This document shows positions 3,557-12,721 of a stretch of DNA of 13,367 nucleotides, piece after piece (positions within the stretch are counted from its first letter, which is position 1; every line of letters begins with the position of its first letter). Both the position numbers and the translations under genes were made by a program. Under the pieces are notes generated by a model. That model saw only the letters and a list, made by a program, of their open reading frames with translations. It ran no database searches and had not been told where the DNA came from. The stretch lies in the NCBI GenBank assembly GCA_945867245.1, contig CAMBHQ010000010.1, positions 1-13,367 of the forward strand. Direction: 5' to 3'. Source of the DNA: an uncultured Porphyromonas sp. (lineage in GTDB: Bacteria; Bacteroidota; Bacteroidia; Bacteroidales; Porphyromonadaceae).

Positions 3557-3689
3557 AGTGATCAGTGGCTAGTGGGCAGTGGGCAGTGATCAGTGGCTAG
3601 TGGGCGGTAGCCAGTGATCAGTGGCGTGCGCCAGCAACTGACCACCGACCACTAGCCACTGACCACTATAAAACCCTCTGACCACTATA
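3557..3689. repeat. Composite heptad repeat, element A
   Basis: The left arm consists of ten consecutive 7-bp units of type AGTGGNC/AGTGATC (3557-3626). A short junction TGCGCCAGC (3627-3635) follows, then the inverse units ACTGACC, ACCGACC, ACTAGCC and ACTGACC (3637-3664). The arms are complementary, so either strand can fold into a long imperfect hairpin. Unlike the other copies it has no CTAG block between the arms. A trailing ACTATAAAACCC is shared with element B. It lies just upstream of the rpsL promoter's -33 site. No ORF in it looks like a gene. Confidence 0.85.
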
Positions 3690-3693
3690 ATCT

Positions 3694-3770
3694 CCGCCTA
3701 ATAGGTCGACACTTGCCCGCCTAATAGGTGGACGATCGTCCGCCTATTAGGCGGCCACTTGGCCACCTAT
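3694..3770. repeat. 23-bp tandem array with palindromic core
   Basis: Three complete units start at 3694, 3717 and 3740, and a fourth is broken off after CCACCTAT (3763-3770). Each unit begins CCGCCTAWTAGGYSG, itself a palindrome that is perfect in the third unit (CCGCCTATTAGGCGG), followed by 8 variable bases. Units 2 and 3 together make a 38-bp inverted repeat (3717-3754) with one mismatched pair. It sits between elements A and B and is unlike either. The regular spacing and dyads would suit binding of a dimeric DNA-binding protein, but no function can be read from the sequence. Confidence 0.75.
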
Positions 3771-3795
3771 CGAGTGATGCCAGAGCGGGCTAGAG

Positions 3796-4003
3796 AGTGG
3801 GCAGTGATCGGTGGGCAGTGGCTAGTGGGCGGGCTCAAGCCCGCCATACTAGCTCTAGTATTCCTAGTGAGACTAGGGCTACTAGGGACACTAGGACCAC
3901 TAGCAAGACTAGCGAGACTAGACCTAGCCTGCGCCAGCCACCGCCCGCTAGCCACTGACCACTGGCCACTGACCACTGACCACTATAAAACCCACTGCCC
4001 ACT
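3796..4003. repeat. Composite heptad/CTAG repeat, element B
   Basis: Five left heptads (3796-3830) lead into an 8-bp-stem hairpin, GGCGGGCT-CA-AGCCCGCC (3828-3845). CTAG then occurs at exact 9-bp intervals eight times (3855 to 3918), bounded on each side by one more CTAG at 6 bp (3849 and 3924). The junction CCTGCGCCAGCC follows. The right arm is ACCGCCC, GCTAGCC and four units of ACTGACC type (3940-3981), then ACTATAAAACCC and a last ACTGCCC (3994-4000). The element stops 8 bases before the -7 box of the efp promoter. No transposase or flanking target duplication is evident. Confidence 0.9.
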
Positions 4004-4011
4004 ATTTTTAC

Positions 4012-4019
4012 TATCTTTG
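4012..4019 (+). promoter_or_regulatory. -7 promoter element for efp
   Basis: TATCTTTG fits the Bacteroidetes -7 consensus TAnnTTTG and lies 40 bases from the efp ATG, leaving an A-rich leader of about 35 bases. No TTG is found at the expected -33 distance; that position is occupied by the end of repeat element B. Confidence 0.7.
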
Positions 4020-4058
4020 CGACATATAATCAATTAAGAAAGCAATAGACAAACAAAC

Positions 4059-4628
4059 ATGGCAAGTACAGCAGACTTCCGTAATGGTATGTGCCTCGAC
4101 ATCGACGGGCAATACTTCTTCATCGTCGAATTCCTACACGTTAAGCCAGGCAAGGGCCCAGCTTTCGTACGCACTAAGCTCAAGAACGTAGCCACTGGCC
4201 GCGTTATCGACAAGACCTGGAACTCAGGTGTTAAGGTCGAAGAAGTGCGCATCGAACGCCGCCCATACCAATTCCTATACAAGGATGAGATGGGGCTCAA
4301 CTTCATGCACCCCGAGACCTTCGAACAGATTACTATCGCCGAGGCACTCATCGATGGCGTCCAATTCCTCAAGGATGGCGATATGGTAGAGGCCATGGTA
4401 CATGCCGAGAGCGAAACCGTCCTCACCTGCGAACTGCCAGCACACGTAACGCTACGTGTTACCTACACCGAGCCAGGCCTCAAGGGCGATACTGCTACCA
4501 ACACCCTAAAGCCCGCTACCCTAGAGACAGGCGCCGAGGTGCGTGTACCCCTATTCATTACCGAGGGTGAGCTCATCCAAGTGGATACCCGCGACGGCTC
4601 TTACCTAGGTCGCGTCAAGGAAGCCTAA
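4059..4628 (+). CDS. efp: Translation elongation factor P
   Basis: EF-P enters the ribosome between the P and E sites and relieves stalling at consecutive prolines. The 189-residue length is the family norm. The tip loop of domain [10 protein letters not shown] (residues 28-36), contains Lys32, equivalent to the lysine that is modified in E. coli EF-P. The domain III signature [10 protein letters not shown] followed by KPATLETGA and VPLFI is intact, and the protein ends KVDTRxG-like ([16 protein letters not shown]). The start is preceded by AACAAAC, with no Shine-Dalgarno. It is a single-gene unit converging with rpoD. Which modification pathway acts on Lys32 cannot be told from this window. 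Confidence 0.98.
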
Positions 4629-4653
4629 GCGCGCCCCCACAGGCACAACAAAA

Positions 4654-4697
4654 AAGACCTCCCCCAGAGCATCTATCCGAGCTCTGGGGGAGGTCTT
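4654..4697. terminator. Bidirectional terminator between efp and rpoD
   Basis: A perfect 17-bp stem (4654-4670 with 4681-4697) encloses a 10-base loop and sits between two converging genes. On the minus strand the stem is followed by a run of T residues (from AAAAAA on the plus strand), making a classical intrinsic terminator for rpoD. On the plus strand the tail TCTATTATTA is weaker but plausible for efp. Confidence 0.9.
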
Positions 4698-4712
4698 CTA
4701 TTATTAGTTGCC

Positions 4713-5576
4713 TTAACCGAGGTAAGCCTTCAGCGGGTCGCAGTTGGCTGTAGCACGTAGACGACGGATAGACTTCTCCTTAATCTGGCGTACACGCTCA
4801 CGTGTCAGACCAAACTTCTCGCCAATCTCCTCGAGGGTCATCGCCTGAGGTGTGCCGATGCCGAAGAAACACTTCACGATATCGGCCTCGCGCTCAGAGA
4901 GGTTAGAGAGCACACGCTCTATCTCTAGCCCTAGGGACTCGTGTAGTAGGCTACGGTCGGTGCTAGGGCCATCGTCGTGTGTCAGTACGTCGATGAGGCT
5001 GTTGTCCTCGCCCTCCTGAAAGGGGGCATCCACAGATATATGACGGCCCGACACCTTGAGCGTATCGGCAATCTTCGACTCGTCGATACCGAGAATCTCG
5101 GCAAGCTCTGCGGGCGAAGGGCGACGCTCGTTCTCCTGCTCAAACTTGGCCAAGGCCTTCTGTATCTTATTGAGCGTACCTACCTGATTGAGGGGTAGGC
5201 GCACGATACGGCTCTGCTCGGCTAGGGCCTGCAGGATAGACTGACGTATCCACCACACCGCATACGAGATGAATTTGAAGCCACGTGTCTCGTCAAACTT
5301 CTCAGCCGCTTTGATTAGGCCGAGGTTACCCTCGTTAATCAGGTCGGGCAGGCTTAGGCCCTGATTTTGGTACTGCTTAGCCACCGATACCACGAAGCGC
5401 AGGTTGGCACGTGTCAGTTTGTCGAGGGCACGGCGGTCGCCACGGCGGATGGCCTGCGCCAGCTCTACTTCTTCCTCGATGCTGATAAGCTCCTCGCGAC
5501 CAATCTCCTGTAGGTAGCGGTCGAGAGAGGCGCTCTCGCGGTTCGTAATCGACTTCGAAATTTTAAGTTGTCTCAT
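4713..5576 (-). CDS. rpoD: Primary RNA polymerase sigma factor (RpoD/SigA type)
   Basis: This is the housekeeping sigma factor that directs RNA polymerase to most promoters. Its 287 residues and N-terminus [18 protein letters not shown] are typical of the Bacteroidota primary sigma, which lacks region 1.1 and starts at region 1.2. Region 2 is visible as [37 protein letters not shown] and [15 protein letters not shown], covering core binding, -10 recognition and melting. Region 3 includes [12 protein letters not shown], and region 4 the helix-turn-helix [28 protein letters not shown]. An AAGGAG directly touches the ATG, too close to act as a Shine-Dalgarno, so the start rests on the conserved N-terminus. 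It is transcribed divergently from tamB. Confidence 0.95.
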
Positions 5577-5648
5577 CTCCTTATATCTATTATCCTGATT
5601 GTGTACTTGACTAACAGACGACGGGGTCTAATTGTTTGAATAAGTGTA

Positions 5649-5656
5649 CAAAGATA
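5649..5656 (-). promoter_or_regulatory. -7 promoter element for rpoD
   Basis: TATCTTTG on the minus strand matches TAnnTTTG and leaves a leader of about 70 bases before the rpoD ATG. The left arm of repeat element C begins six bases further upstream at 5663, so the -33 region consists of heptad repeats and contains no TTG. Confidence 0.7.
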
Positions 5657-5662
5657 CGAAAT

Positions 5663-5873
5663 AGTGGGCAGTGGGCAGTGGGCAGTGGGCGGTGGGCAGT
5701 GGGCAGTGGGCAGTGGGCGGTGGGTAGTGGGCGGGCTCAAGCCCGCCAGCCTAGCGCTAGCATTCCTAGTAAGACTAGGGACACTAGGGCTACTAGACCT
5801 AGCCTGCGCCAGCCACCGACCACTGACCACCGCCCACTGACCACTCTCTAGCCTGCGCCAGCCACTGCCCACT
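5663..5873. repeat. Composite heptad/CTAG repeat, element C
   Basis: Ten left heptads, nearly all AGTGGGC (5663-5732), run into the same GGCGGGCT-CA-AGCCCGCC hairpin as in element B (5730-5747). CTAG follows at 5751, 5757, 5766, 5775, 5784, 5793 and 5799, so the spacing is 6, then 9 four times, then 6. The right arm ACCGACC, ACTGACC, ACCGCCC, ACTGACC (5815-5842) is interrupted by 21 bases (exactly three heptads) that repeat the junction TGCGCCAGCC, and ends ACTGCCC ACT. The element fills the whole interval between the rpoD and tamB -7 boxes. ORFs crossing it are low-complexity and not credible. Confidence 0.9.
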
Positions 5874-5882
5874 AATAATCAC

Positions 5883-5890
5883 TACCTTTG
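5883..5890 (+). promoter_or_regulatory. -7 promoter element for tamB, close to the ATG
   Basis: TACCTTTG matches TAnnTTTG and ends six bases before the tamB ATG. Since transcription in this phylum starts only a few bases after this element, the mRNA would have no leader or almost none. No TTG -33 element is visible; the repeat's right arm occupies that position. Confidence 0.6.
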
Positions 5891-5896
5891 TAGACG

Positions 5897-8800
5897 ATGA
5901 CAGAGCAAGCGCCACGACGACGCTGGGGGAGATGGCTATTGGCCCTCGTCCTCCTGCCGCCCCTCCTAGTCCTGCTAGGGGGTATAGCGCTATATATCCC
6001 CGCTGTGCAAGACTGGGCCCGTGGCTATGCCGAGCGAGAGCTTAGCGAGCGACTAGGGATGACAACGCGCATCGGACAGCTCAGACTCGTCTTCCCCCTC
6101 GACCTCTCCCTGCGCGAGGTAGCACTACTGCACAGCCCGCAGGATACGCTCCTAGCCCTCGGCAGGCTCGATATAGGTATTAGCCCCCGCCCCCTGCTCG
6201 ACAAACAGGCCGTGATACCCCAGCTCGACCTCGAACGCCTATACTACCACGATACCGACAGCCTAGGCAGCACGACACGACTACGCCTCGGCGAGGCTAA
6301 GCTACGGGGCTTCGCCCTCGACCTAGACAGGCAGCGCATCATCGCCTCGGGTCTAGCAGCCTCGGGCCTAGAGGTCTATTACCACAGCACAGACACTACC
6401 GCATCGCAGGATACGACCCGCCTAAAGTGGCAGATAGCCCTCGGAGACCTCAGCCTAGAGAAGGCTCAGGTACGCGTAGAGCTACCCCACGACTCCGTAT
6501 ATATAAAGACGCAGTTTGACCACCTAGGTCTGCACAACGTGGCAGCCGACCTCGGGACGAATACCTACAAGGCCCTAGGGGCCGAGATAGCTCGAGCGCA
6601 GATTGCCTATGCTATCGATACCCTCCCCGCACGCAGCCCCTATATGGACTATGGGCACATCGAGGCCTCGGACCTCATGCTCAAACTCCGTGGCATACAC
6701 TCCGAGGGCGCACGCCTTAGCCTAGAGGTCCTAGAGGGCTCAGCGCGCGAACGCTCCGGCCTAGCCATCACCAGTCTGAAGGGCAAGTACCATCAGGATA
6801 GTCTCAGGATGCTCGTCTCTCAGCTAGACCTGCGCACCGAGCATTCGTCCCTCTCAGGCGAAGTCGATATACCCTGGCGCATCTTCGACGGGGACAGCAC
6901 GGCCCTACTGGTGGCCAAGCTCTCCGCAGGCATAGACGCCCACGATGTGCAGAGCATCGCTGGGGCCTATATCGCCACAAGCCCCACCTACCGACATATC
7001 AACAAAAGCCTCGCTACCGAGCTACAGGCCCCCGTGCATATCGAGCTGGATGCCCTCGGCACACTCGCCGATATGGAGGTCGAGCGCAGCTACATCCGCT
7101 GGCCACAGGTGCTAGAGCTGGAGCTCGAGGGACGTCTGGAGCAACTCCTCGACGCGCATCGTCGTAGGGGCAAGATGAGCCTCCGGAGCGAACTCGGTGC
7201 TCGGGCGCAGTCCCTGTTGCGCCTGGCTAGTCCTCAGCTAGCGCAGAGCTACCACTTGCCCCCTGGTACTACGCTCGATGGCGACCTCGATATCAGACGT
7301 AATTATTACCAACTGGATGCCCTCCTAGCCGAGGGTAATGGTAGCCTAGATATTGATGGCTTCTACGATGCACGGGCGCAGCACTACAGCCTAGACCTCG
7401 GCTTCGAGGACCTAGACCTCGCCCGCTTCATGCCTCGTGGCGACTTCGGTACCCTGACAGGCAAGCTGACAGCCAGCGGACGTGGCCTCGATATCCTAGG
7501 GGCACGCACCAGCACCACCCTAACAGGCCGTGTGCAGGGGCTTGCTTATAGAGGGATGGATCTTGCCAACATCACCCTAGACGGCAGTCTGGACCAAGGT
7601 AAGCTCAGCCTCGTAGCCAATAGCTTCAACCAAGGGCTCGACTTCGTCCTCGCCCTCGATGGCATGCTCTCTCGCCAGCAGATAAAGTCTAGCCTGAGCC
7701 TGAGCAGCATGGGCATAGACCTGCATACACTGGGGCTGAGCGAGCAGACACTAGCCGCGAGCTTCGACCTCGAGGGCGAGCTACGTAGCGATCTCACGGA
7801 CACGCACTACCTCAGCGCCGAGCTCGCCAACGTACAGATAATAGTCGATGAGGATAGCATACGCCCACAGCAGGTGAGCCTACTCGTCGATACCGACCAG
7901 AGCCGTAGCCGTGCCAGCATAAACTCGGGCGATATGGCCCTCCGCCTGCACCTAGGCGAGGGCCCTAGCCAGCTGATGAAGCGCAGCCAGCAGTTGGCTA
8001 GTCTGGCAGGCGAGCTACAGCAGGAGCTACAGCGCTCTGTGCCGATGACAAGCCGTCTAGAGCAGCTCTATGCCAGCCTGCCACGGCTAGACCTCGACCT
8101 AGAGCTCGGCAAGGACAATGCCCTGCGCCCCTACCTAGCCCAGCAGCGCATCGCCCTAGAGTCGCTAGAGGGACACCTGCGCCTGCACCCCCAGAGCGGT
8201 CTAGAGGGACACTTCACGGCACGAGATATTAGACGAGACACCCTGCGCATCAACTGCATCGACCTAGAGCTCTCTACCCAGCGCATAGCACGCACGGCGC
8301 TAGGACGCACACAGCCCCTAGACAGTATGCGCCTACTGGGGACACTGCGCATAGACAAGCGACGCTTCCGTCAGCAGGCGGGCTTCGGCCTCAGCGCCAA
8401 TATCAATACCTCGCTACAGGATGCCCTCCTCAGCCTAGAGGCCCTCGACGAGCGCGACCAGCCCCAGCACCGTATAAGCCTAGCGGGCCAATGGTCAGGC
8501 GACAGCTATCGTCTCCACCTCCCCGAGCCAACGCTCCTACTGGGCGGACATCGCCTCAGCGTCAATCCGGATAACTGGCTACAGCTAAGCAAGGGCGATT
8601 ATGCCCTTGGGGCAGACCTGCGCCTTGCCACCTCGGACAGCGCTCAGCTCAGCCTTAGCGCTCAGCACGAGGGCCAAGCGCTACAGGAGGCACGGCTCAG
8701 CATCAATGGCATTAAGCTAGAGGACTATCGTAGCCTAGGACTACCCGAGCTAAGCGGTAGGCTCGTGGGCGAAATCAACTATCAGCGCACAGGCGGACTA

Positions 8801-10660
8801 GAGGTACAGCCCATCATCAATGGCGATATAGCCATACAGCGCCTACACTACGAGGGCAAAGAGCTAGGACACTTCGCTACGGCATTCTTCTACGAGCCCA
8901 AGAGTGACGACAGCCACTATGTAACGGCCGATATGAGCCTCGGGGGCGTGCAGGCGCTCAGCATAAACGGCCTGTATAAGCCTAGGGATAAGGAGAACCC
9001 TCTCGGGGGTAGCCTTAGCCTCAAGGGCTTCCCGCTAGAGATAGCCAACCCCTTCGTCAGCGACTATGCTACTTACCTAGGCGGTAAGCTCAATGGAGAG
9101 CTAGCCCTCGGGGGCAAGCCTACTAGCCCGAGCCTTACGGGAGAGCTGAGCGCTGACAATGGCTCGGTAGAGCTACGCCAGTATGCCACTACCCTGCGCC
9201 TCGACAGCCTGCCCCTGCGCTTTGCGGGAGACGTGCTACAGCTAGACGGATACAAGGTCTACTCTAGCGTAGACCGCCAGCACCCGCTGACACTAGATGG
9301 CTCGATAGGCATCAGCGGTCAGCGCCTCATGCAGACAGACCTTAGGCTCACAGCCGACGAAATCACACTGCTAGACCAGGAGCGCCCCCGTAGCGACAAT
9401 CAGCTACTCTATGGGCGACTAATAGCCTCGACGAATATGCAGCTACGGGGCAAACTCAATGCCCTCAAGATACGCGGACAGCTGGGCATCAAAAATGGGA
9501 CTAAGGCGACCTACGTAATGCGTGAGTCTACGCTCGACGCTAGCGACAAGGCTCAGGGCCTCGTCTCCTTCGTAGACTTTGCCGATACCGTCTTCGTGGC
9601 GACTCCTGTCTACGAGGCCGAGCTGGGCGGGGTAGACCTTAGCCTAGCCATACAGGTAGAGCCCACTGTGCGCTTCGGGGTAGACCTCACGGCCGACGGC
9701 AGAGACTATATGCGCATGCAGGGCGGGGGCAACCTGCAGCTGCGCTACTTGCCCTATGGCGAGATAAACCTCCGTGGGCGCTACGATATGAGCGGGGGCG
9801 GACAGCTGCAGTACACTCTGCCCGTAGTGGGGAGCAAGCTCTTCAGCATAGACCCTAGCGGATACATCACCTTCGACGGCAATGCCTACAACCCCTATGT
9901 AGACTTCGTAGCGACACAGAAGGTCCGAGCAGCCACAGGAGAGGCCTCCGGAGGAAAGACCAACTTCCTGGTAAGCATCAAGATGAAAAACCGACTGGAG
10001 AACATCAACCTCGCCTTCGACCTCTCAGCACCCGAGAACCTAAGCATACAGAATAGCCTCGCCACCATGTCCGCCGAGGAGCGGGGCAAGCAGGCTATCG
10101 GACTACTGGCTACCGGCACTTACCTAGGCGGTAGCGCTGGAGGCAATAACCTCAACCTCAACGAGACCTTCGCCGCCCTGTTACAGAACCAAATCAATAC
10201 CGTCGCGGGCAACCTCCTCTCGGGCACAGACCTCAGCATCGGCATGGAGATGAACGACGGCACTACCGGCAATCAGCATACCAGCTATACCTATAGCTTC
10301 AGCCGACGCTTCTACAACGACCGCATACGCCTCGTCATCGGGGGCAAGCTACACACGGGCCAGAATGTGAGCAACAGCGAGCAGACGCTCATCGACAACG
10401 TAGCCCTAGAGTATCAGCTGGATAAGGCTGGCGAGCGCTTCGGGCGTGTGTATTACAAGCGTGTTACCGACAACGTCATCGAGGGCGAGTACAACGAGAC
10501 GGGCCTCGGCCTCATGCTGCGTCGCAAGCTCAATAAGCTCAACGAGCTATTCCGCTTCCGTCGCCCACAGCTCATACCGCAAGACACGACGAAGACACAG
10601 CCCATTATCCGTAGCTTTAGCCTACCTCTAGGCAACGAGCAGAAAGGAGCTACGCCATGA
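5897..10660 (+). CDS. tamB: TamB-like translocation/assembly module protein (AsmA-like bridge)
   Basis: The 1587-residue product begins with a basic stretch RRRWGRW and one hydrophobic segment (about residues 14-34), then PAVQDWARGYAERELSERLG, the usual TamB entry. This predicts an inner-membrane anchor with the rest in the periplasm. The body is repetitive beta-strand sequence with many G-x-L-x-I turns. The C-terminal third contains GYITFDGNAYNPYVDFVATQ and MSAEERGKQAIGLLATGTYL, matching the conserved TamB (DUF490) domain. Family members bridge inner and outer membranes and, with an Omp85 partner, support outer-membrane protein assembly or phospholipid transport. The partner gene is not in this window. 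Leucine CTA codons followed by G are frequent, making the gene rich in CTAG. Its stop overlaps the nadD start. Confidence 0.9.
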   Translation: MTEQAPRRRWGRWLLALVLLPPLLVLLGGIALYIPAVQDWARGYAERELSERLGMTTRIGQLRLVFPLDLSLREVALLHSPQDTLLALGRLDIGISPRPLLDKQAVIPQLDLERLYYHDTDSLGSTTRLRLGEAKLRGFALDLDRQRIIASGLAASGLEVYYHSTDTTASQDTTRLKWQIALGDLSLEKAQVRVELPHDSVYIKTQFDHLGLHNVAADLGTNTYKALGAEIARAQIAYAIDTLPARSPYMDYGHIEASDLMLKLRGIHSEGARLSLEVLEGSARERSGLAITSLKGKYHQDSLRMLVSQLDLRTEHSSLSGEVDIPWRIFDGDSTALLVAKLSAGIDAHDVQSIAGAYIATSPTYRHINKSLATELQAPVHIELDALGTLADMEVERSYIRWPQVLELELEGRLEQLLDAHRRRGKMSLRSELGARAQSLLRLASPQLAQSYHLPPGTTLDGDLDIRRNYYQLDALLAEGNGSLDIDGFYDARAQHYSLDLGFEDLDLARFMPRGDFGTLTGKLTASGRGLDILGARTSTTLTGRVQGLAYRGMDLANITLDGSLDQGKLSLVANSFNQGLDFVLALDGMLSRQQIKSSLSLSSMGIDLHTLGLSEQTLAASFDLEGELRSDLTDTHYLSAELANVQIIVDEDSIRPQQVSLLVDTDQSRSRASINSGDMALRLHLGEGPSQLMKRSQQLASLAGELQQELQRSVPMTSRLEQLYASLPRLDLDLELGKDNALRPYLAQQRIALESLEGHLRLHPQSGLEGHFTARDIRRDTLRINCIDLELSTQRIARTALGRTQPLDSMRLLGTLRIDKRRFRQQAGFGLSANINTSLQDALLSLEALDERDQPQHRISLAGQWSGDSYRLHLPEPTLLLGGHRLSVNPDNWLQLSKGDYALGADLRLATSDSAQLSLSAQHEGQALQEARLSINGIKLEDYRSLGLPELSGRLVGEINYQRTGGLEVQPIINGDIAIQRLHYEGKELGHFATAFFYEPKSDDSHYVTADMSLGGVQALSINGLYKPRDKENPLGGSLSLKGFPLEIANPFVSDYATYLGGKLNGELALGGKPTSPSLTGELSADNGSVELRQYATTLRLDSLPLRFAGDVLQLDGYKVYSSVDRQHPLTLDGSIGISGQRLMQTDLRLTADEITLLDQERPRSDNQLLYGRLIASTNMQLRGKLNALKIRGQLGIKNGTKATYVMRESTLDASDKAQGLVSFVDFADTVFVATPVYEAELGGVDLSLAIQVEPTVRFGVDLTADGRDYMRMQGGGNLQLRYLPYGEINLRGRYDMSGGGQLQYTLPVVGSKLFSIDPSGYITFDGNAYNPYVDFVATQKVRAATGEASGGKTNFLVSIKMKNRLENINLAFDLSAPENLSIQNSLATMSAEERGKQAIGLLATGTYLGGSAGGNNLNLNETFAALLQNQINTVAGNLLSGTDLSIGMEMNDGTTGNQHTSYTYSFSRRFYNDRIRLVIGGKLHTGQNVSNSEQTLIDNVALEYQLDKAGERFGRVYYKRVTDNVIEGEYNETGLGLMLRRKLNKLNELFRFRRPQLIPQDTTKTQPIIRSFSLPLGNEQKGATP

Positions 10661-11181
10661 TAGCTCTCTTCGCGGGCTCCTTCAACCCCATACACTGGGG
10701 GCATCTAGCCCTCGCCCGCTATGCACACGAGAGCTTGGGGGCCCGTGAGGTATGGCTAATGCTAAGCCCCCTCAACCCACAGAAGGAGGCCTCGGAGCAG
10801 TGGCCCTATGCCGAGCGGGCTCGCCTAATCCGTGCCGCCATAGCCCCATACCCTTATATGCGTCTAGTGGAGCTAGAGCAGGCGCTCCCACGTCCGCTCT
10901 ATACCTGGCGCACGGTGCAGGCGCTGCGCCTGCTGTACCCGAGAGAAGACTTCGCCCTCGTCATCGGCAGCGACAACCTACAGCGTTTCCGTTCCTGGAG
11001 TCGCTGGCAGTACCTGCTCTCGCTCATTAAGCTCTACGTCTATCCCCGCCCAGGCTACGAGATTGAGCCCAGCGAATACACAGACATACCGCATACCCTC
11101 TGCACGGATGCCCCGCTGATGGATATTTCCTCTACGGAGATACGCAGGGGCGGTGGGCAGTATGCAGTGGTCAGTGGCTAG
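10657..11181 (+). CDS. nadD: Nicotinate-mononucleotide adenylyltransferase with repeat-derived C-terminus
   Basis: NadD transfers AMP from ATP to nicotinate mononucleotide, giving deamido-NAD in NAD synthesis. The nucleotidyltransferase signature GSFNPIHWGH (residues 7-16) and the second motif ISSTEIR (157-163) are present, as are PQKEASEQW and FALVIGSDNLQRFRSW. Its ATG overlaps the tamB stop (ATGA), so translation is probably coupled. The protein has 174 residues, whereas family members are usually about 190-215. Homologues continue some 25-30 residues past ISSTxIR through a segment resembling LVP-x-V-x-x-YI. Here residues 166-174 (GGQYAVVSG) and the stop codon are encoded by repeat element D. 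Activity may be retained, because both active-site motifs are intact, but the tail is lost. Confidence 0.93.
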   Translation: MIALFAGSFNPIHWGHLALARYAHESLGAREVWLMLSPLNPQKEASEQWPYAERARLIRAAIAPYPYMRLVELEQALPRPLYTWRTVQALRLLYPREDFALVIGSDNLQRFRSWSRWQYLLSLIKLYVYPRPGYEIEPSEYTDIPHTLCTDAPLMDISSTEIRRGGGQYAVVSG

Positions 11182-11346
11182 TGGCTAGTAAGCAGTGGTC
11201 AGTGGTCAGTGGTCAGTGGCTAGATCCCTAGGACTACTAGGGATACTAGTACTACTAGTAAGACCAGCCAGACTAGACCTAGCGTGCGCCAGCCACCGAC
11301 CACTGCATACTGATCACTGCGGGCTCTGCCCGCCCCACCGACCACT
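11152..11346. repeat. Composite heptad/CTAG repeat, element D
   Basis: Ten left heptads (GGTGGGC, AGTATGC, AGTGGTC and similar; 11152-11221) start inside the nadD reading frame. CTAG recurs at 11228, 11237, 11246, 11255 and 11273 on a 9-bp grid, with CCAG in the 11264 position, then at 11279 after 6 bp. The junction CGTGCGCCAGCC and right units ACCGACC, ACTGCAT, ACTGATC follow. A 21-base insert (11316-11336) carries the hairpin GCGGGC-TCT-GCCCGC and preserves the heptad phase before ACCGACC ACT. No TAnnTTTG core separates it from the acyltransferase start at 11363. Confidence 0.9.
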
Positions 11347-11362
11347 CTAAAAAGAAACTCTT

Positions 11363-12496
11363 ATGCACCAGCAACAACAGCTCCCCAGTACCTCTGCCGG
11401 ACGTCCGCACTACCTAGCCCTCGATGGCCTGCGTGGTGTGGCCGCCCTAGTAGTCGTATGGTATCATATCTTCGAGGCTTTTGCCGCGAGTCCATTCAGC
11501 CAAGAGGTCAATCACGGCTATCTGGCTGTTGATTTCTTCTTCCTCCTCTCGGGCTTCGTCGTGAGCTATGCTTACGACGGGCGCTGGGCACAGATGGGCC
11601 TCGGCGAATTTATCAAGCGACGCCTCATCCGCCTACATCCGATGCTCATCATCAGCGCTCTCCTCGGGGGGCTGATGTTTTACACTCAGGCGACGCCTAC
11701 GCAGCCGCTGCACCTCGTTCCCGTAGGCATGGTATTGCTATCGACGCTGATGAATGCTCTGCTTATCCCCTCTCTGCCGAGCTGGGAGATACGTGGCTAT
11801 ACCGAAATCTTCCCGCTCAATGGCCCTACGTGGTCCTTGTTTTTCGAGTATATCGGCAATATCCTATATGCGCTTGTCCTGCGTCATCTACCGACGTGGG
11901 GGCTAACGCTGGCAGTACTGCTCTGCGGGGCGGGGCTCGCCTATGAGGGCTTTGTCCACTCTCCTTGGGGCTACCTTGGGGCAGGCTGGAGCTTTGCCGA
12001 TGGGGGCTTCTGGGGTGGTCTAGCACGTGTGTGCTTCTCCTTCGGTGCTGGGGTACTCCTCTCTAGGCTCTACCGCCCAGTGGCCTATCGTCGTGGCTTC
12101 TGGCTCTCGGCACTTGTGCTCGTAGCCCTGCTGGTGATGCCACGTATAGGCGATGCTGATACGCTCTGGATGAATGCCTTGTATGAGTGTGTTGTCGTGA
12201 TGCTTATCTTCCCTGTGCTGCTATGGCTAGGGGCCTCGGATAGCACGGAGAGCCCTCGCTTGCGGAGGCTGTACACGTTCCTAGGCGAGCTATCCTATCC
12301 GCTGTACATCATCCACTACCCCTCTGTATACCTATATATCGCTTGGGTGCGGAGCAATGAATTGACAGTCCTACAGTCGTTGCCTGGGGCGCTAGCGCTC
12401 TTTTTCGGCAACATTGTCTTGGCCTACCTACTACTACGCATATACGATCTGCCCGTACGTCGCTGGCTAAGCCGGAGGTTAGTGGTCGGTGGCTAG
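11363..12496 (+). CDS. Acyltransferase family 3 membrane protein
   Basis: Members of this family (OatA/WbbJ/NolL-like) are inner-membrane proteins that move acetyl or other acyl groups onto sugars of peptidoglycan, O-antigen or other glycans. The 377 residues begin with the diagnostic YLALDGLRGVAALVVVWYH (about 17-35), including the RG and the catalytic-type histidine, followed by GYLAVDFFFLLSGFVVSYAY and the basic FIKRRLIRLHPM. About ten hydrophobic segments follow, with LSYPLYIIHYP near the end, a typical late motif. The last residues VVGG and the stop come from repeat element E, but the transmembrane core looks complete. The acceptor substrate cannot be assigned. No clear own promoter was seen, so readthrough from tamB-nadD is possible. 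Confidence 0.9.
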   Translation: MHQQQQLPSTSAGRPHYLALDGLRGVAALVVVWYHIFEAFAASPFSQEVNHGYLAVDFFFLLSGFVVSYAYDGRWAQMGLGEFIKRRLIRLHPMLIISALLGGLMFYTQATPTQPLHLVPVGMVLLSTLMNALLIPSLPSWEIRGYTEIFPLNGPTWSLFFEYIGNILYALVLRHLPTWGLTLAVLLCGAGLAYEGFVHSPWGYLGAGWSFADGGFWGGLARVCFSFGAGVLLSRLYRPVAYRRGFWLSALVLVALLVMPRIGDADTLWMNALYECVVVMLIFPVLLWLGASDSTESPRLRRLYTFLGELSYPLYIIHYPSVYLYIAWVRSNELTVLQSLPGALALFFGNIVLAYLLLRIYDLPVRRWLSRRLVVGG

Positions 12497-12615
12497 TATG
12501 CAGTGGTCAGTATTCAGTGGCTAGCTCCCTAGGGCTACTAGGGACTACTAGGGACACTAGGGCTACTAGTAAGACCAGCTAGACTAGCCCTAGCGTGCGC
12601 ACGCCAGCCCACTCC
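12481..12615. repeat. Composite heptad/CTAG repeat, element E (right arm mostly missing)
   Basis: Six left heptads (12481-12522) start within the last codons of the acyltransferase gene. CTAG then recurs at 12529, 12538, 12548, 12557 and 12566, with CCAG at 12575, CTAG at 12584 and a last one 6 bp on at 12590. The steps are 9 bp except for one of 10. The segment CTAGTAAGACCAGC is shared with element D, so D and E are the closest pair. The junction is altered (CGTGCGCACGCCAGCCC), and the right arm is reduced to CCCACTCC. Confidence 0.85.
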
Positions 12616-12628
12616 AAAACTCACTACA

Positions 12629-12671
12629 ACACCCCCTGTCCCTACAGCTGAGCCGTAGGGACAGGGGGTGT
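12629..12671. terminator. Strong hairpin between converging genes, probable terminator
   Basis: A perfect 17-bp stem (12629-12645 with 12655-12671) surrounds a 9-base loop, between the plus-strand acyltransferase gene and the minus-strand gene ending at 12722. Stem length and GC-rich character match the efp/rpoD terminator. Neither flank has a good T run, so termination efficiency is uncertain. The remaining bases to 12721 hold only two small inverted repeats, at 12692-12706 and 12706-12717. Confidence 0.7.
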
Positions 12672-12721
12672 CTCCTTGTGGTGCTATCGACCTCTATCTA
12701 GTAGAGCCCGTGCGGGCGTCT

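What the first reader, a model, noticed from the sequence alone, without database searches (positions are those of the whole stretch)
3557..12615. Family of composite intergenic repeats with a fixed plan
Five copies (A 3557-3689, B 3796-4003, C 5663-5873, D 11152-11346, E 12481-12615) lie in every large gap except the rpsL-rpsG spacer. The plan is AGTGGNC heptads, a CTAG block, a TGCGCCAGCC junction, and ACTGACC inverse heptads. Copy A lacks the CTAG block and copy E has almost no right arm. Insertions in the right arms of C and D are 21 bases long, keeping the heptad phase. The arms could form very long hairpins in DNA or RNA. The copies flank diverging and codirectional genes alike, so they are not simply terminators. 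I know of no named family with this plan; whether it has been described is untested.
Basis: partly seen in the sequence, partly recalled or inferred. Interest (0 to 1): 0.75.

Follow-up and report, generated by a model that had tools for sequence, protein, structure and literature searches.

The report
Palindromic spacer repeats with CTAG core
The gaps between this bacterium's genes hold a real family of repeats built from seven-base units that face inward around a nine-base CTAG grid; related species keep the same plan with other seven-base words, and it looks more like DNA that grows and spreads by itself than like a set of gene switches.

Summary
All five copies are at the stated places; heptads and CTAG grid far exceed shuffled sequence (29 vs 0.07; 12 vs 0.01). 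The family is genome-wide: 51 clusters in 238 kb examined.

Relatives widen it. The nine-base CTAG grid occurs in 7 of 38 genomes of the family, flanked in five sister species by other heptads (TTAGARR). Where a gap has both arms they point inward: 28 of 28 gaps here, 15 of 15 in the clade, 12 of 13 metagenome contig groups wholly. Orthologous copies differ by multiples of 7 in arms (15 of 24 gaps) and of 9 in cores (3 of 4). CTAG changes less than the bases between (3/213 vs 30/215, with ascertainment bias). Copies abut or enter gene 3' ends, and the nadD frame beside copy D lacks its relatives' tail. In other Bacteroidales the grid often lies in long frames, some in conserved enzymes.

Best reading: self-expanding palindromic spacer DNA, a new variant of known heptamer repeats, with a CTAG grid I found undescribed in the papers searched. 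How it spreads is unknown; a binding-array role stays open.

The parts
3557..3689 (.). Copy A: inward heptad arms around the junction (TGCGCCAGC at 3627); no CTAG grid
   Evidence: RNA fold z -5.87
3796..4003 (.). Copy B: left heptad arm, GC palindrome, CTAG grid, junction at 3930, right heptad arm
   Evidence: z -7.26
3855..3921 (.). CTAG nine-base grid of copy B (8 CTAGs in step)
5663..5873 (.). Copy C, between the diverging rpoD-like and tamB-like genes; junctions at 5805 and 5854
   Evidence: z -6.22
5757..5796 (.). CTAG nine-base grid of copy C (5 CTAGs in step)
11152..11346 (.). Copy D; begins inside the nadD reading frame; right arm holds the 21-base GC palindrome block
   Evidence: z -6.54
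10657..11181 (+). nadD reading frame whose last codons are copied from copy D's heptads and which lacks the C-terminal part seen in relatives
12481..12615 (.). Copy E: left arm and CTAG grid, almost no right arm; begins inside the acyltransferase-like reading frame
   Evidence: z -1.06

Best explanation
The copies belong to a family of palindromic spacer repeats that grow and spread in the genome as near-neutral or mildly harmful DNA. Each is put together from tandem modules: inward-facing heptad arms (RGTGRNY here), often a grid of CTAG every nine bases, GC palindromes, and a small hairpin junction. Shown: inward polarity in every two-armed gap examined, length changes mostly by whole units between sister species, a lineage-specific heptad vocabulary, CTAG better kept than the five bases between, and copies that abut or enter gene 3' ends. 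Inferred: units are gained and lost by slippage or unequal recombination, helped by hairpins on single-stranded DNA; new sites are seeded by copies of the palindrome; a sequence-specific factor, enzyme or binding protein, not identified, keeps CTAG and the heptad core. Effects on neighbouring RNAs, such as folding at 3' ends, would be side effects or later uses.
For: Polarity: 28 of 28 two-armed gaps in G000 and 15 of 15 in the five-species clade, in codirectional, divergent and convergent gaps alike. Whole units: 15 of 24 alignment gaps in arms are multiples of 7 against 3 of 27 in flanks, and 3 of 4 in cores are 9. CTAG: 3 of 213 sites changed against 30 of 215 for N5, flanks 421 of 5461; in G000, not selected by CTAG, 74 of 102 mid positions are CTAG while neighbouring N5s agree at 2.16 of 5. 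Gene ends: repeats within 10 bp of or overlapping a 3' end in 18 of 43 cases, a 5' end in 2 of 54. nadD ends 11 residues after SSTEIR; 17 of 17 readable relatives go on for 22-64. Own arms pair no better than arms of different copies, as expected of units drawn from one pool.
Against: No empty site and no target duplication was found, so movement to new loci is not shown. No copying enzyme was found. CTAG conservation would equally be expected of a functional binding array. Pairs for one search were picked by four CTAGs in both members. 9 of 24 arm gaps are not multiples of 7. Copies A-D fold far better than shuffled sequence, which an RNA role would also predict.
Confidence: 0.48

Rival explanations
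1. Binding arrays: a nucleoid, regulatory or RNA-binding protein recognises CTAG every nine bases and the heptads every seven, and the copies act as boundary or regulatory elements of the gaps.
For: CTAG and the heptad core are kept while neighbouring bases vary; exact steps of 9 and 7; both arms face inward in all gap classes.
Against: Heptad words differ between G000 and the sister clade; unit number changes readily; copies enter gene ends and, in other Bacteroidales, reading frames; no protein was identified.
Confidence: 0.24
2. RNA elements: transcribed copies fold into long hairpins that end, protect or process mRNAs from either side.
For: A-D fold with z -5.9 to -7.3; arms often start at the stop codon.
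Against: Gaps without any 3' end hold copies as well: 9 of 20 divergent against 5 of 15 convergent. No terminator-like site overlaps a copy. Plain hairpins stand separately in the efp-rpoD gap and after E. No locus-level pairing preference.
Confidence: 0.15
3. Transposon-derived elements (MITE or REP type) moved by a transposase that acts on the palindrome.
For: Many copies, palindromic, intergenic; BrickBuilt MITEs are known in P. gingivalis (PMC4596501, abstract and one section read).
Against: Published BrickBuilt, ISPg and MITE ends do not occur in the window and only 0-2 times each in the 21 sequences. Y1 transposase PF01797 is absent from G018, G017, G002 and the half-complete G000, and present in array-free G011. 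Target duplications were not found.
Confidence: 0.1
4. Assembly artefact of a repeat-rich draft genome.
For: G000 is a 270-contig, 54.6% complete draft; 3 of 39 contig ends examined lie within 100 bp of heptads.
Against: The plan occurs in one- and two-contig relatives (G020, G017), and orthologous copies lie in separate assemblies.
Confidence: 0.02

Closest known systems
TAACTGA heptamer direct repeats of Beggiatoaceae, Cyanobacteria and some Bacteroidetes (MacGregor 2015, PMC4679880; abstract, sections 9, 10, 24 and passages read)
   Same: Intergenic heptamer arrays, patchy among lineages, often at start codons, some overlapping gene ends. Read on the other strand the unit is AGTTATC, which adjoins AGTGGNC units in phase in metagenome loci.
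   Different: Here two inward arms around a core. That paper reports direct repeats and a single inverted one in its main genome. No doubled AGTTATC in the sequences of G000 or of the clade examined, and no CTAG grid in the passages read.
BrickBuilt, a minisatellite inside a MITE of Porphyromonas gingivalis (PMC4596501; abstract, section 7 part 1, term search)
   Same: Tandem repeat inside an inverted-repeat element, intergenic, in what is probably the same genus.
   Different: 23-base unit and IS5-type ends; none of its ends in the window; the text does not contain CTAG or heptamer.
Rickettsia palindromic elements (passages in the review PMC10969869) and PARCELs (PMC2996958, abstract)
   Same: Palindromic repeats in frame inside genes, as the CTAG grid appears in other Bacteroidales.
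   Different: About 150-base elements, or 25-residue protein repeats; here a nine-base grid with free five-base spacers. In G000 and G020 no array has a spanning frame of 150 codons.
REP elements with RAYT transposases (recalled)
   Same: Extragenic palindromes in many copies.
   Different: No Y1 transposase in several array-bearing genomes; built of heptad and nonamer tandem units.

Membership tests
TAACTGA-type heptamer repeats (PMC4679880) | Direct repeats of TAACTGA (= AGTTATC on the other strand) | tested here: not met
   0 doubled units in the 21 G000 sequences and 0 in the clade loci
TAACTGA-type heptamer repeats (PMC4679880) | Wider vocabulary: units of one array mix with AGT[TA]ATC | tested here: inconclusive
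   In phase next to AGTGGNC in 12 of 63 metagenome loci, 2 of 21 G000 sequences, none in the clade
BrickBuilt and other P. gingivalis MITEs (PMC4596501) | 12-base terminal repeats of IS5 type | tested here: not met
   Four published ends with at most 1 mismatch: none in the window, 4 in all in the 21 sequences
BrickBuilt and other P. gingivalis MITEs (PMC4596501) | Target site duplication | not tested
   No empty site was found to compare with
REP/RAYT | Y1 transposase PF01797 in the same genome | tested here: not met
   Absent from G018, G017, G002; present in G020, G012, G280 and array-free G011; G000 none but only 54.6% complete
Rho-independent terminators | GC stem followed by T run at gene 3' ends | tested here: not met
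   No terminator-like site overlaps copies A-E; divergent gaps are not depleted
Rfam RNA families | Match at the gathering score | tested here: not met
   0 matches in the window
Rickettsia palindromic elements | In-frame insertion in protein genes | tested here: not met
   0 of 23 arrays in G000 and 0 of 19 in G020 have a spanning frame of 150 codons; other Bacteroidales do, 53 of 144

The most novel reading that the evidence does not exclude
The CTAG nine-base grid is the product of an undescribed sequence-specific DNA process that writes or keeps CTAG at exact 9-base steps in spacers and, in several Bacteroidales, in frame inside conserved genes. The inward heptad arms are a second such product, with one polarity rule across unrelated bacteria.
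Probability: 0.25. Interest if true: 0.85.

Novelty: new variant of a known kind. Interest (0 to 1): 0.66.

Why it matters
Heptamer repeats are known from several groups of bacteria, and the one paper I read on them leaves their cause open. An inward polarity without exception in this genome and its relatives, a CTAG grid with an exact step, and sister species that differ by whole units at the same loci make the question of how such repeats arise testable. Their entry into gene ends shows that they can reshape proteins.

Tried and rejected
Terminator reading: rejected as the main role from the gap classes and because no terminator-like site overlaps a copy. RAYT: the Y1 transposase does not track the arrays. 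Stop-codon-array idea (TAG in every frame): fits the TTAGARR clade, but AGTGGNC arms are open frames, so dropped. Locus-level hairpin selection: own arms beat cross pairs in 0.52 (G000), 0.38 (G020) and 0.50 (G018) of comparisons, 0.5 being chance. Plasmid and phage BLAST with copy C: no match. rpoD spacers of the genus: the neighbouring gene differs from that of G000 and there are no arrays, so no empty site. Ten unselected rpoD and nadD loci of the five-species clade hold no arrays. The TAG excess at abutting stops (15 of 18, against 70 of 158 in a baseline gene set) is partly circular, since T before AGTGG makes TAG. Gene ends come from a crude longest-ORF caller of mine, and its repeat mask misses copy E. 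An impression in my notes, that one left arm switched heptad type between G017 and G018, was not borne out and is dropped.

Controls against the reading: the GATC control pattern also hits 7 of 393 genomes (at most 5 matches each) and that hits 3 of 38 (1 each), so presence alone says little; the large counts (9 to 83) do. The 10-base control grid hits 2 of 393. Three of the 14 genomes look like plain tandem repeats.

Rows dropped or not independent: of 12 pairs printed, L231/L292 was left out because an insertion breaks its left flank. Eleven pairs give 55 gaps of 3 bases or more; two pairs with diverged flanks (L221, L226) were kept, and without them arms give 13 of 19 multiples of 7. NadD ends were read in 17 of 25 relatives; a second extraction failed for 15 of 26 rows and was not used. 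One-sided gaps (10 in G000, 28 in the clade) say nothing on polarity. Clade loci include orthologues. The 63 viral-contig loci reduce to 51 groups; one group supplies 57 of the inward clusters. The loci were not analysed.
Full report
What is there. The window is contig 10 of a 1.37-Mb, 270-contig, 54.6%-complete draft genome, G000. Its five copies are real and far beyond chance: 29 doubled AGTGGNC units against 0.07 expected, and 12 triple CTAGs at 9-base spacing against 0.01. The plan in full is a left arm of heptads, often a GC palindrome (GGCGGGCTYAAGCCCGCC type, 8 found), a grid of CTAG every nine bases, a junction GTGCGCCAGC that can form a small hairpin, and a right arm of inverse heptads. 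A second palindrome, GCGGGC-NNN-GCCCGC in a 21-base in-phase block, occurs 27 times in the sequences examined. Copies A-D fold with z between -5.9 and -7.3, E with -1.06.

Copy number. Copy B finds 79 matches in the draft. In the window and 20 further stretches (238 kb, chosen by size or by hits) I count 51 clusters; the rule joins A and B and misses E. Of 165 gaps called there, 40 hold repeats: 26 of 130 codirectional, 9 of 20 divergent, 5 of 15 convergent; of gaps of 200 bp or more, 26 of 53 (crude gene calls). Of 41 junction sites, 29 have an arm or grid on the left and an arm on the right within 45 bases.

The plan in relatives. A triple AGTGGNC pattern has 10 matches in G000 and none in the 25 other genomes held of the genus. 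The CTAG grid is found in 7 of 38 genomes of the family: G018 77, G000 51, G017 42, G020 34, G012 18, G002 9, G021 1; the GATC control pattern gives 1 match in each of 3 genomes. The single G021 match has no arms. In G020, G018, G017, G012 and G002 the grid is flanked by TTAGARR heptads on the left and YYTCTAA on the right, or by TTRGCTG-type heptads. Flanks of grids show period 7 in G000, G020 and G018 (0.39, 0.42, 0.34 against 0.26-0.28 shuffled) but not in G280 or the loci. On an RpoD tree of 24 genomes the five sister species form one clade (100/100) and G000 lies apart among array-free species. The best tree needs two changes and no bootstrap tree needs one, but the well-supported branches alone do not rule out one origin. 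All six have CTAG near its expected frequency (observed/expected 0.83-1.17, from two loci each; those of G000 include arrays). The 15 species with a ratio under 0.8 have no arrays, but neither do five others above it, counting G021 with its lone match.

Beyond the family. Among 393 genomes of the order 14 have the 9-base grid, 2 a 10-base control grid and 7 the GATC control. The difference lies in the counts: up to 83 for the grid, at most 5 for the controls. Three of the 14 look like plain tandem repeats. There the grid is often inside long frames: 53 of 144 arrays have a spanning frame of 150 codons or more, 6 of 14 in G280, 1 of 9 in G018, 0 of 23 in G000, 0 of 19 in G020. A long frame is not proof of a gene, but against solved homologues the IleS array is a 12-residue insertion, and those in ValS and carbamoyl-phosphate synthase add about four residues. 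Nine of ten further frames match Pfam families, among them topoisomerase, Mur ligase, ABC, RapZ, glycoside hydrolase, GcvP2 and sulfatase domains.

Polarity. In every gap with both arms, RGTGRNY (or TTAGARR) units lie left and their inverses right: 28 of 28 in G000 and 15 of 15 in the clade, in all gap classes; 10 and 28 further gaps have one arm only. In 63 metagenome loci called viral, chosen for four AGTGGNC units, 87 two-armed clusters are inward and 1 outward. After grouping, 12 of 13 groups are wholly inward, one group supplying 57 clusters; shuffled contigs give none. Whether these contigs are phage or host DNA was not tested.

How it changes. Eleven loci with two matching flanks among the five sister species were aligned. 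Of gaps of 3 bases or more, 15 of 24 in arms are multiples of 7, 3 of 4 in cores are 9, and 3 of 27 in flanks are multiples of 7. CTAG differs at 3 of 213 aligned sites, N5 at 30 of 215 (Fisher p 6e-7), arms at 90 of 1124, flanks at 421 of 5461; both members of each pair were picked by four CTAGs, which lowers the first figure. In G000, not picked that way, the position midway between CTAGs 18 apart is CTAG in 74 of 102 cases and one off in 9, while neighbouring N5s agree at 2.16 of 5. In the clade 179 sandwiched heptads keep TTAGA (168-178 per position), and the last two positions are purines in 169 and 172. Own arms pair no better than arms of different copies.

Gene ends. Repeats lie within 10 bp of, or overlap, a gene 3' end in 18 of 43 cases and a 5' end in 2 of 54 (p 5e-6). 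At copy D the nadD frame stops 11 residues after SSTEIR, the last of them written by heptads. All 17 relatives that could be read (of 25) go on for 22-64 residues, 13 of them with a D[LF]R-x-W block; the solved homologue 1kam also continues (194 residues). Whether the shortened protein works is unknown.

Mechanism. I read this as palindromic DNA that expands by units and seeds new gaps, and fills what selection leaves free: 3' ends up to the stop, 5' sides short of the promoter. An unknown specific factor keeps its core words. Polarity, unit-wise change, CTAG conservation and gene-end overlap are shown; seeding, hairpin help and the factor are inferred. A binding-array role is the strongest rival.

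Comparison. It works like, and partly shares words with, the TAACTGA heptamer repeats (in phase side by side in 12 of 63 metagenome loci), but differs in the two-armed plan and the CTAG core, and G000 has no doubled TAACTGA. It meets no defining test of BrickBuilt or REP/RAYT and matches no Rfam family. Nine library searches found no paper on the plan. That the genus is Porphyromonas is my inference, from gene content and from the ISPg4/MITEPgRS-type end GAGACTGTTGCA in relatives' loci (PMC4596501 table 2); no named record was matched.

Noticed in passing
window 3694-3769: A different tandem repeat of 23 bases (CCGCCTAATAGGTSG...) between copies A and B; CCTAATAGG/CCTATTAGG occurs 30 times in 13 of the 21 G000 sequences examined.
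   Followed up: partly
window 4645-4700 and 12625-12672: Plain perfect hairpins in the convergent efp-rpoD gap and after copy E look like ordinary terminators and are separate from the repeats.
   Followed up: no
G000 stretches C1-C11: CTAG, usually avoided in bacteria (recalled), is the commonest palindromic four-base word here, 1394 in 186 kb; in the genus its observed/expected ratio runs from 0 to 1.17.
   Followed up: partly
G020 loci L217, L223, L227: Palindromic CCACGTGG-type repeats lie beside several CTAG arrays in the sister species.
   Followed up: no
L084-L086: About 30-base insertions ending in GAGACTGTTGCA/TGCAACAGTCTC-like repeats in rpoD loci of the sister species, like published P. 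gingivalis MITE ends.
   Followed up: no
L255, L123: In two Bacteroidales records the CTAG grid sits at the same place, just before a RapZ C-terminal domain.
   Followed up: no
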